From assembly GCF_003614945.1 (NCBI RefSeq), contig NZ_QYCZ01000001.1, positions 948,001 to 1,012,000 of the forward strand: 64,000 nt of DNA, given 5' to 3'. Source of the stretch: Bergeyella cardium. Lineage in GTDB: Bacteria; Bacteroidota; Bacteroidia; Flavobacteriales; Weeksellaceae. Positions 15,500-54,229 of this stretch are shown here, piece by piece (position 1 is the stretch's first letter; every line of letters starts with the position of its first letter). The notes beneath the pieces are model-generated. The model made no database searches and was not told where the DNA came from. It worked only from the letters and a program-made list of their open reading frames with translations. The translations under genes were made by a program, and so were the position numbers.

Positions 15500-15558
15500 A
15501 TGAAATTAATAAAATTATCTCTGTTTTAATGCGTAGTTTATCTGTTTTTGAAGAAAAT

Positions 15559-15747
15559 CTTAGTAAGATTACTAAGATGGAGCATTAAATTAATGCTCTA
15601 TACCTCTAAATTAGTGCTCCAGAGGTCAAATTTTGACCTCCATCGCATTAAAATAGACCGACGACGGTCTAAAATTGACCTCCATCTCATTAAATTAATG
15701 CGTCATCGTATTAAATTTGACCTCCGTTGTATTAATAAATAATACTA
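15559..15747. repeat. Array A: nine degenerate palindromic units on a 21-bp period
   Basis: Cutting this stretch every 21 bp from 15559 aligns a central TTAAATT-like core in nearly every unit, flanked by arms that differ between units but are self-complementary. Examples are CTTAGTA/TACTAAG (15559-), GAGCATTAA/TTAATGCTC (15580-), GAGGTCAAA/TTTGACCTC (15622-) and AGACCG/CGGTCT across a unit boundary (15655-15670). The sequence TTGACCTCC recurs at 15634, 15675 and 15717. A degenerate continuation with ATTAATCGGCTCA at 15765 and 15809 (44 bp apart) lies beyond. The array sits between the dapB terminator and the surface-protein genes. It is not a CRISPR: there is no constant repeat and no cas gene. 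Confidence 0.75.
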
Positions 15748-52513: not shown

Positions 52514-53923
52514 ATGAATAACACTATCATCACCATACTAACAGCAGTGCTTATAACCTCCTGCGCAGCAAGGCAGGAGTACAAACAGCCCACTGAAGTT
52601 GCCACTGAAAACCTCTTCCGAACCGATAGCCTTACCCTAAAAGGCAGTAGTATTGAAAGTACGGAAACCAGCATTGCTACTACCCCTTGGAAGGAAATCT
52701 TCACCGATAGCCATCTCCAAAACCTTATAAGCAAAGGTTTGGAAAATAATTTAGATGTGCTTACCGCAGTGCAGAATATTGCTTCCGCAGAGGCATACTT
52801 AAAGCAATACAAGGCAAGCGTATATGAGCCTACGCTCTCCCTCGTTGCAAATTTTAGCTACCAGACGCCTTCCCTTAATTCAGCTTCTGGGCAGGGGAGG
52901 GATAGGACTTATCTTCGGCAGTATGACCTCACTGCAAGTCTCAGCTGGGAGGCAGATATCTGGGGCAAGCTCAATGCACAAAAGAAAGCACAGCTCGCTA
53001 CCTACCTGAGTACCGTTGCAGCCCAGCAGGCGGTAAAGAGTACTTTGGTAGCATCATTGGCAACGGCATACTTCCAGCTCCTTACCTATGACAAGCAAAA
53101 GCAAATCATTGAGCAGACTATTGAGCTTCGCCAAAAGAATTTAGAGACCACCAAAGCGCTGAAATCTGCAGGCTCCCTCACCGAAGTTGCCGTAAAACAA
53201 AGCGAAGCCTTAGTTTATAATGCTCAGGCATCGCTCATCAGTATAGAAAATCAAATTGTGCAGTTGGAAAATTCCATCTCTCTCCTCCTCGGGGAAGCGC
53301 CTCATAAAATAGAGCGAGGGAGTATAGACGAGCAGGTTTTAAACATTAATACATCGCTCGGCTACCCAAGCCATCTGCTTACCCATCGCCCAGATGTAAG
53401 AAAAGCGGAGCTCGACCTTAGGGCAGCCTTTGAGCTGACCAATGTAGCCAATGCACAGTTCTACCCGAGCCTTAAAATCACCGCAAACGGAGGGCTTCAA
53501 TCATTAGACATAGATAAGCTCTTTAGCACCAATTCCCTTTTTGCGAGCATCATTGCCGGTCTTACCCAGCCTTTGCTCAACAAAAGACAGATACGCACCA
53601 ATTATGAAGTGAGCCTCGCCAATAAAGAAAAAGCCTACCTCGCCTTCCGCAAGGCAGTCCTCACCGCAGGAAAGGAAGTCTCCGATGCGCTAAAAATCTA
53701 TTCCTCACAAGAGGAGTTCATCAGCTTAAAGAAAAAGGAGCTCGAAGCCTATACTCATTCCGTAGATTACTCCCGCGAGCTTGTGAATTACGGTATGGCA
53801 AATTACTTAGAAGTCCTCAACGCTGATGTAAATAAACTCAATGCCGAGCTCAATATCCTCAATGCTCAATACATAAAACTACAATCTGGCGTAGAACTCT
53901 ACCGCGCTCTCGGCGCCCACTAA
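52514..53923 (+). CDS. RND efflux outer-membrane lipoprotein (OprM/TolC type)
   Basis: A 469-residue outer-membrane factor with lipobox ITSCAAR (Cys17) and two internally homologous halves with long coiled helices. Family features include PWKEIFTDSHLQNLISKGLENN, YDLTASLSWEADIWGKL, LLTHRPDVRKAELDLRAAFE and NYLEVLNADVNKLNAEL. It completes the efflux operon. Its stop codon is immediately followed by 21-bp array B. Confidence 0.94.
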   Translation: MNNTIITILTAVLITSCAARQEYKQPTEVATENLFRTDSLTLKGSSIESTETSIATTPWKEIFTDSHLQNLISKGLENNLDVLTAVQNIASAEAYLKQYKASVYEPTLSLVANFSYQTPSLNSASGQGRDRTYLRQYDLTASLSWEADIWGKLNAQKKAQLATYLSTVAAQQAVKSTLVASLATAYFQLLTYDKQKQIIEQTIELRQKNLETTKALKSAGSLTEVAVKQSEALVYNAQASLISIENQIVQLENSISLLLGEAPHKIERGSIDEQVLNINTSLGYPSHLLTHRPDVRKAELDLRAAFELTNVANAQFYPSLKITANGGLQSLDIDKLFSTNSLFASIIAGLTQPLLNKRQIRTNYEVSLANKEKAYLAFRKAVLTAGKEVSDALKIYSSQEEFISLKKKELEAYTHSVDYSRELVNYGMANYLEVLNADVNKLNAELNILNAQYIKLQSGVELYRALGAH

Positions 53924-54106
53924 CTTAAAAACTCCATCGTTTGGGTCAGAGACCCCATTTTTGGGTTAAAAACCCGAACGATTAGGTCAAAGACCGGAAA
54001 TTTTGGGTCAGAGACCCCATCGTTTAGGTTAAGAACCGGAACGATTAGGTTGGTTACCGTATTCAATTAGGTTCCAGACCTAAAATTTTAGGTTAAGAAC
54101 CTAAAA
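53921..54106. repeat. Array B: eight to nine small hairpin units on a 21-bp period
   Basis: Units of 4-5-bp stems around 3-nt loops begin at 53943, 53963, 53984, 54005, 54026, 54047, 54069 and 54090 (steps 20, 21, 21, 21, 21, 22, 21). Stems vary in step on both sides: GGGTC/GACCC, GGGTT/AACCC, GGTC/GACC, GGTT/AACC and AGGTT/AACCT; only the sixth unit is imperfect. Linkers alternate between CATCGTTT-like and GAACGATT-like. A weak ninth unit (TTAAAAACTCCATCGT) abuts the efflux stop codon. It shares GACC(C/T)CCATCG-like linkers with array A. Confidence 0.8.
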
Positions 54107-54229
54107 ATTGATAAAAAATAGCCTATTTTTTTATTAAAATGATAATTAGCGGTTGGCTACTGGCGATTAGCTAATAGCTATTTGCCAAAAGCCATAATCC
54201 AGTGGGGTCGGAGACAAATTAGAAATAAA

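What the first reader, a model, noticed from the sequence alone, without database searches (positions are those of the whole stretch)
53921..54106. Array of small hairpins repeating every 21 bp with co-varying stems (array B)
Eight consecutive units each form a 4-5-bp stem with a 3-nt loop, starting at 53943, 53963, 53984, 54005, 54026, 54047, 54069 and 54090. The stem bases change between units (GGGTC, GGGTT, GGTC, GGTT, AGGTT) while the partner arm changes to match; only unit 6 is imperfect. Tandem duplication followed by drift would break the pairing, so either the stem is selected or the copying mechanism writes palindromes. The 21-bp period equals two turns of B-DNA, which would place every unit on one face of the helix for a binding protein; as RNA it would be a chain of mini-hairpins. 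It starts at the stop codon of the efflux operon. I know no named family for it.
Basis: partly seen in the sequence, partly recalled or inferred. Interest (0 to 1): 0.78.

Follow-up and report, generated by a model that had tools for sequence, protein, structure and literature searches.

The report
Intergenic repeat of small DNA hairpins
A short non-coding stretch after an efflux operon is one of nine scattered copies of a repeat built from 21-base hairpin units, and one sister copy suggests that DNA copying itself can write such hairpins, so their matching arms need not mean a selected function.

Summary
The array is real: eight hairpin units at 53943-54102, spaced 20-22 bases, not reproduced by shuffles. 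It is one of nine dispersed intergenic copies in this genome. All nine share a conserved AT-rich 3' end; their 5' arrays differ in length and content. A model of that 3' end found nothing in 295 other genomes of the order. Arrays of the same plan occur sporadically in other Bacteroidota and in Hormoscilla. Matching of the stem arms is supported statistically across the nine copies. One copy (L061) carries a perfect 25+3+25-base palindrome: its right arm was rewritten as the reverse complement of its left arm and its loop is inverted, the reported signature of polymerase template switching. I found no RNA strand bias, Rfam match or coding frame, and no Y1 transposase or reverse transcriptase in the genome. 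The period is shared: in a 464-kb sample, 17 of 35 other non-coding tandem repeats have period 20-22 or 41-43; only 3 of those 17 units show a significant hairpin, in a test of low power. Best reading: a BrickBuilt-like dispersed element with a nested minisatellite whose palindromes are written or repaired by template switching. The genome-wide 21/42-bp period stays unexplained.

The parts
53921..53923 (+). stop codon of the OEP (outer-membrane efflux) gene, last gene of the upstream operon
53943..54102 (+). array of eight imperfect palindromic units, starts 20-22 apart
53943..53955 (+). unit 1 GGGTCAGAGACCC, 5-bp stem
53963..53975 (+). unit 2 GGGTTAAAAACCC, 5-bp stem
53984..53996 (+). unit 3 AGGTCAAAGACCG, 4-bp stem
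54005..54017 (+). unit 4 GGGTCAGAGACCC, 5-bp stem
54026..54038 (+). unit 5 AGGTTAAGAACCG, 4-bp stem; flanking spacers ATCGTT/AACGAT also pair
54047..54059 (+). unit 6 AGGTTGGTTACCG, 3-bp stem; same unit in copy L062 and, as AGGTGGGTCACCG, in L066
54069..54081 (+). unit 7 AGGTTCCAGACCT, T.G at the innermost pair
54090..54102 (+). unit 8 AGGTTAAGAACCT, 5-bp stem
54103..54147 (+). conserved AT-rich 3' module (GAYAAAAAA, 7-8 variable bases, T-run, ATTAAAAYRAYAATT in most copies), present in all nine copies
54148..54197 (+). heptad-like GGC/AGC low-complexity tail; similar tails follow six of the nine copies (read), and such repeats also occur alone, so perhaps not part of the element

Best explanation
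This is one copy of a dispersed, non-coding, MITE-like repeat in intergenic DNA. Its 3' AT-rich end is fixed and its 5' part is a 21-bp minisatellite of short palindromes. The array grows, shrinks and reshuffles by slippage or recombination (inferred from differing unit number and order). When a unit folds into a hairpin during replication, the polymerase can switch template and copy one arm onto the other. That homogenises the arms and can invert the loop (seen in the sequence of one copy, inferred for the rest). Arms then match between drifting units without selection on an RNA or a bound protein. How the nine copies spread is not known.
For: Nine copies at different intergenic sites with one conserved 3' module (model R1 finds exactly 9 in own genome). 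L061: left arm 21-24 of 25 identical to four sisters (L060, L063, L065, L067), right arm 16-17 of 25, arms 25 of 25 complementary (sisters 16-19 of 25), loop AGG changed to CCT. Template switching is reported to cause arm homogenisation and spacer inversion (PMC8604942 abstract) and compensatory stem changes (PMC8794818 abstract and part of its introduction). Spacers on either side of a hairpin also pair in excess, 158 of 357 against 133 expected, p=0.0097. No strand preference: 6 of 9 copies fold better on the element strand. No frame longer than 48 aa, stop to stop, over the window array.
Against: Only one clear template-switch event among nine copies. Eleven of 60 units show T.G (7) or C.A (4) at the inner pair, so stepwise change happens too. 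Loop inversion (loops differing from their reverse complement at all three bases): 0 in 7 Bacteroidota arrays (0.12 expected) and 0 in 28 other arrays; 3 in 13 Hormoscilla arrays (0.04 expected); 1 in 5 own-genome arrays (0.19 expected), which is in L061 itself. Within-array covariation at the hairpin axis is weak in 30 Bacteroidota arrays. I saw no terminal inverted repeats or target duplications when reading, and identified no mobilising enzyme.
Confidence: 0.48

Rival explanations
1. A DNA-binding array: a dimeric protein binds each palindrome, and two helical turns between units put all sites on one face of the helix (operator, nucleoid or segregation array).
For: Conserved GGT..ACC half-sites and a 20-22 spacing. 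In own genome 7 of 7 GGTTN3AACC pairs found with a free gap of 4-33 bases are at period 21, against 1 match of the reversed control pattern. The same plan recurs in other Bacteroidota. Among other non-coding repeats of this genome, hairpin units appear in 3 of 17 with period 20-22/41-43 and 0 of 18 with other periods.
Against: Most of those 17 repeats show no significant hairpin yet share the period (weak test), so the period does not need this protein. Intergenic autocorrelation has no peak at 10-11 or 31-32 in this genome. Only 2 of 395 genomes sampled from the phylum carry a perfect triple.
Confidence: 0.19
2. A structured RNA: the array is transcribed from the upstream gene as a 3' untranslated chain of hairpins that protects, terminates or sequesters.
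For: Strong fold. In 7 of 9 copies the gene on the 5' side points into the element. Unit 1 scores as a terminator-like site.
Against: No strand bias in fold energy (6 of 9). T.G and C.A at the inner pair are similar in number, 7 and 4. In four copies (L059, L062, L066, L067) a terminator-like stem with T-run, judged by eye, precedes the array. Two of nine copies do not follow a gene end. Of 33 Bacteroidota arrays, the 24 with both neighbours known are 13 tandem, 7 convergent, 4 divergent, against 94, 29, 32 gaps in own genome. No Rfam match.
Confidence: 0.13
3. An ordinary minisatellite built on a palindromic unit, with no process keeping arms matched; the matching reflects shared descent of a few unit types.
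For: The covariation signal shrinks when repeated units are collapsed (p 0.03 and 0.014 for 32 distinct stems; inner-pair Fisher p=0.09). Weak covariation in other genomes.
Against: The 25+3+25 palindrome of L061 with inverted loop is not what drift makes; spacers beyond the stem also pair in excess.
Confidence: 0.2

Closest known systems
BrickBuilt of Porphyromonas gingivalis (MITE with nested 23-nt tandem repeats; PMC4596501, passages read)
   Same: Bacteroidota; 19 dispersed intergenic copies in ATCC 33277; nested imperfect short tandem repeats of similar length and variable number; predicted stem loops; conserved flanks of the array
   Different: BrickBuilt has leader, tail and terminal inverted repeats like those of ISPg1/ISPg9; here only a 3' module is conserved and I saw no terminal inverted repeats. 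Its repeat consensus AGAYCATARTATCCTCTCRTRTG is unrelated; in the passages read its unit is not called a palindrome.
REP / BIME elements with RAYT transposases (PMC3733652 seen in search listing only; details recalled)
   Same: small intergenic palindromes in several copies
   Different: no Y1_Tnp (PF01797) match in own genome; head-to-tail arrays of period 21; no such array within about 1.5 kb of 6 Y1 matches of related genomes that I looked at, of 9 listed
Short tandemly repeated (heptamer) repeats of cyanobacteria (recalled, no call)
   Same: intergenic repeats of period 7 and its multiples; Hormoscilla arrays found here have the same hairpin plan
   Different: the window array is not made of heptamers
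Template-switch (quasipalindrome) mutation hot spots (PMC8794818 and PMC8604942 abstracts; PMC7202029 listing)
   Same: arm homogenisation and loop inversion, as in L061
   Different: in the parts I read described for inverted repeats in genes, not for a dispersed tandem array

Membership tests
MITE of the BrickBuilt type | dispersed intergenic copies with a conserved non-repetitive flank | tested here: met
   nine copies with a shared 3' module
MITE of the BrickBuilt type | nested imperfect short tandem repeats of variable number | tested here: met
   unit lists of nine copies
MITE of the BrickBuilt type | terminal inverted repeats shared with a resident IS | tested here: inconclusive
   reading the ends of the nine copies I saw no matching inverted termini; no dedicated search for termini or IS elements was run
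MITE of the BrickBuilt type | target-site duplication or empty sites | not testable with these tools
   no other genome of genus g1 was among those searched
REP/BIME-RAYT | Y1 tyrosine transposase in the genome | tested here: not met
   PF01797: 0 matches in G000. Against this: all five other genomes picked for a repeat-pair match have the gene and all four picked without one lack it, but four of the five are one genus
REP/BIME-RAYT | GTAG or CGTC tag at the foot of the palindrome (recalled) | not tested
   no dedicated test
Rfam structured RNA | score above a family's gathering threshold | tested here: not met
   0 in window; only a tRNA in 12 array loci
protein-coding 7-aa repeat | open frame with start and stop through the array | tested here: not met
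   longest stop-to-stop frame over the window array 48 aa, no listed ORF of 80 aa or more over it
template-switch-written palindrome | arm homogenisation relative to relatives | tested here: met
   L061 only
template-switch-written palindrome | loop inversion | tested here: met
   L061 AGG to CCT; 3 Hormoscilla units, none in 7 Bacteroidota and 28 other test arrays
template-switch-written palindrome | the same signature in the window copy itself | tested here: inconclusive
   no long arm conversion in L064; longest perfect arms 9

The most novel reading that the evidence does not exclude
The intergenic DNA of this genome follows a 21-bp ruler that does not depend on one sequence. Unrelated repeat families, hairpin and not, are laid down at 21 and 42 bp, and the signal persists after the detected arrays are masked. 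An unknown amplification process or chromosome-bound protein with a two-turn step may generate or keep them, with template switching turning some into hairpin arrays.
Probability: 0.13. Interest if true: 0.75.

Novelty: new variant of a known kind. Interest (0 to 1): 0.42.

Why it matters
Covarying stems are commonly taken as proof of a selected RNA structure. This family offers a natural bacterial case where a mutational process can write matching arms in non-coding DNA, with sister copies to trace it. It also exposes a genome-wide 21/42-bp repeat period that has no explanation yet and could be tested with strain genomes.

Tried and rejected
RAYT/REP origin: no Y1 transposase match in own genome, and no array within about 1.5 kb of the 6 Y1 matches examined, of 9. 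Told against this rejection: the gene was present in all five other genomes chosen for a repeat-pair match and absent from the four chosen without one; four of the five belong to one genus, so kinship may explain it. Reverse-transcription spread, considered because the 3' end is fixed and the 5' end varies: no RVT_1 in own genome. Plasmid or phage carriage: no blastn match in plasmids or phages, no exact match to the 3' module in viral contigs; 6 viral stretches match the triple pattern and were not followed. A shared spacer word AACGA/TCGTT across Bacteroidota, noted early: rejected, 3 of 24 Bacteroidota genomes against 3 of 40 others. Exact 8-mer spacers of own genome recur in 7 of the 24 Bacteroidota genomes and in none of the 40 others or Hormoscilla, but base composition may explain that. 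A site-specific recombination core in the A6-N7-T7 module: idea only, not pursued. Strand-specific RNA selection: no support. Coding repeat: rejected for the window; in other genomes 78 of 103 arrays overlap an ORF of 70 aa or more, which a period divisible by three favours, so some of those may well be coding.

Dropped rows: 13 of the 73 units were left out before (flank matches, terminator stems, two degenerate GGGTCAGAGAGGG edge repeats of L059 and L061, one decayed unit of L067). Two of ten G156 stretches that held known arrays were left out of the period counts. A first palindrome test demanded symmetry of the whole unit; array B's own consensus failed it (p=0.085), so I replaced it by the hairpin test, where 3 of 17 other repeats of the period class pass and array B's own window consensus still does not (p=0.22). 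The comparison with other genomes was also recounted there (12 of 56, not the 11 of 59 used). Because the separation of period from hairpin came out weaker, I lowered the best explanation from 0.50 to 0.48 and raised the DNA-binding rival from 0.17 to 0.19. Literature: four searches for this kind of repeat listed no paper that by title or abstract start describes it; only open-licence papers are held.

Full report
What is there. The eight hairpin units are at the stated places, 20-22 bases apart. Shuffled or Markov sequence does not give such a run, and the region folds far better than its shuffles on either strand and as DNA. The best predicted fold is not a plain row of mini-hairpins. Neighbouring spacers such as ATCGTT and AACGAT also pair, giving larger hairpins, in line with the 42-bp period that TRF reports. 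The array follows an operon of a MarR-like regulator (below cut-off), HlyD, AcrB and OEP proteins and faces a convergent YceI gene. It is not coding.

A family of nine. The own genome (1.96 Mb, three contigs, unnamed) holds nine such elements (loci L059-L067). All end in a conserved AT-rich module. A covariance model of the last two units plus this module finds exactly these nine and none in 295 other genomes of the order (strict filters and only the 15 best candidates per genome were scored, so weak relatives may be missed). The 5' part varies in unit number and order. All nine are intergenic, though in L061 the first repeats run into the last codons of the upstream gene. In seven of nine the gene on the 5' side points into the element, which is not significant for nine copies.

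Do the arms match beyond descent? Over 60 units the outer and inner pairs match more than permuted halves (p below 0.0002), less strongly for 39 distinct units or 32 distinct stems. On the alignment of the nine 3' ends, five of 23 pairs show changes on both sides, three of them in one hairpin; 27 of 500 shuffles reach that number and 4 of 500 the covariation score. In 30 arrays of other Bacteroidota (290 units) the hairpin axis shows little within-array covariation. That result speaks against a general selected stem; the search pattern had itself fixed most stem bases.

How arms can be matched. Copy L061 carries a perfect palindrome with 25-base arms and a 3-base loop. Its left arm is 21-24 of 25 identical to four sister copies, its right arm only 16-17 of 25, and its loop is the reverse complement of theirs. 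Arm homogenisation with loop inversion is what template switching between inverted repeats is reported to produce (PMC8604942 and PMC8794818, abstracts). Spacers flanking a hairpin also pair in excess (p=0.0097). A loop-inversion count over other arrays supports this in Hormoscilla only. So the mechanism is seen once, and extending it to the whole family is inference.

RNA or protein? Fold energy shows no strand preference (6 of 9), T.G and C.A at the inner pair are similar (7 and 4 of 60), array contexts in Bacteroidota resemble own-genome gaps, and no Rfam family matches. These weigh against a transcribed hairpin chain but do not exclude it. A binding protein was not testable here.

The period. 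In a 464-kb sample of the genome (window plus 20 evenly placed stretches), 19 of 38 non-coding tandem repeats of period 6-60 (TRF score at least 45) have period 20-22 or 41-43. Without the array B family itself it is 17 of 35. Of those 17, 3 have a significant hairpin in the consensus unit, of the 18 with other periods none; the test is weak, as the consensus of array B in the window gives p=0.22. Six other genomes of the family give 12 of 56 by the same rule (Fisher p=0.007, or 0.011 without array B). Intergenic autocorrelation peaks at 7, 21 and 42 and stays after masking detected arrays (z 5.0, 4.4, 4.8 against the spread of other lags), with no peak at 10-11 or 31-32. G001, a genome of another genus of the family, shows a weaker 21 signal (z 3.1 masked), G148 and G027 none. 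The period therefore looks like a property of this genome's repeats in general, and it is the part I cannot explain.

Wider distribution. In 395 genomes sampled from the phylum 2 match and the reversed control none. With a free gap of 4-33 bases, 15 of 148 family genomes have a GGTTN3AACC pair, but 16 of 148 match the reversed control, so single pairs mean nothing; clusters stand out in G000 (7 against 1), G156 (18 against 0) and G098 (21 against 0, with regular repeats that may be coding). The pattern was drawn from this array and fixes the period, so these hits show recurrence, not common descent.

Verdict. A dispersed, MITE-like, non-coding repeat with a nested 21-bp palindromic minisatellite, closest in kind to BrickBuilt (PMC4596501, passages) though no terminal inverted repeats were seen, with one clear case of palindrome writing consistent with template switching. 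No function is shown.

Noticed in passing
window 15555-15745: A second 21-bp-period non-coding array with unrelated units (CTCCATCGCATTAAAATAGAC and the like); one related place at C1:825056, where TRF reports no array.
   Followed up: partly
L070 1855-2121 (C1:408.6k): 42-bp repeats followed by two different 21-bp repeats (GCTGTCGGAAACAAAAATGAA, AAAATGAACCTTAGGTCAAAG x6).
   Followed up: no
L073 1871-2349 (C2:56.6k): 42-bp ACACAAAA...TTTTGTGT repeats and an array of GAGGCNATGCCTC hairpins about every 20 bases: a similar hairpin plan with another stem sequence.
   Followed up: no
L273 7943-8018 and L274 9335-9426: 21-bp arrays of another hairpin unit, AAAAAACTGACTGAGTTTTTT, at two places in own genome.
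   Followed up: no
L061, C1:708715-708750: The 5' repeats of the element encode the last residues (..GQRGVREGQRPIL) and supply the stop of the upstream gene.
   Followed up: no
54110-54132 and its eight counterparts: The 3' module keeps an A-run and a T-run but the 7-8 bases between them differ between copies while the flanks are conserved.
   Followed up: partly
54148-54197 and other places in own genome: Heptad GGC/AGC low-complexity repeats, right after the element in six copies and also alone.
   Followed up: no
Hormoscilla loci, e.g. L124 860-1060, L151, L170: Many 21-bp hairpin arrays (GTTGGGGTTTAAAACCTCTCG type) in three Hormoscilla genomes, some with inverted loops.
   Followed up: partly
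L175 3282 on, L154 4298 on, L203 2169 on: Long perfect palindromes (arms 14-19) inside or near the edge of arrays of other Bacteroidota; possible further template-switch products.
   Followed up: no
L271 7339-8316 (C1:1467.3k): About one kilobase of 77/154-bp tandem units that start GTTGTGAATTGCTTTCAATTTG; looks like a CRISPR array.
   Followed up: no
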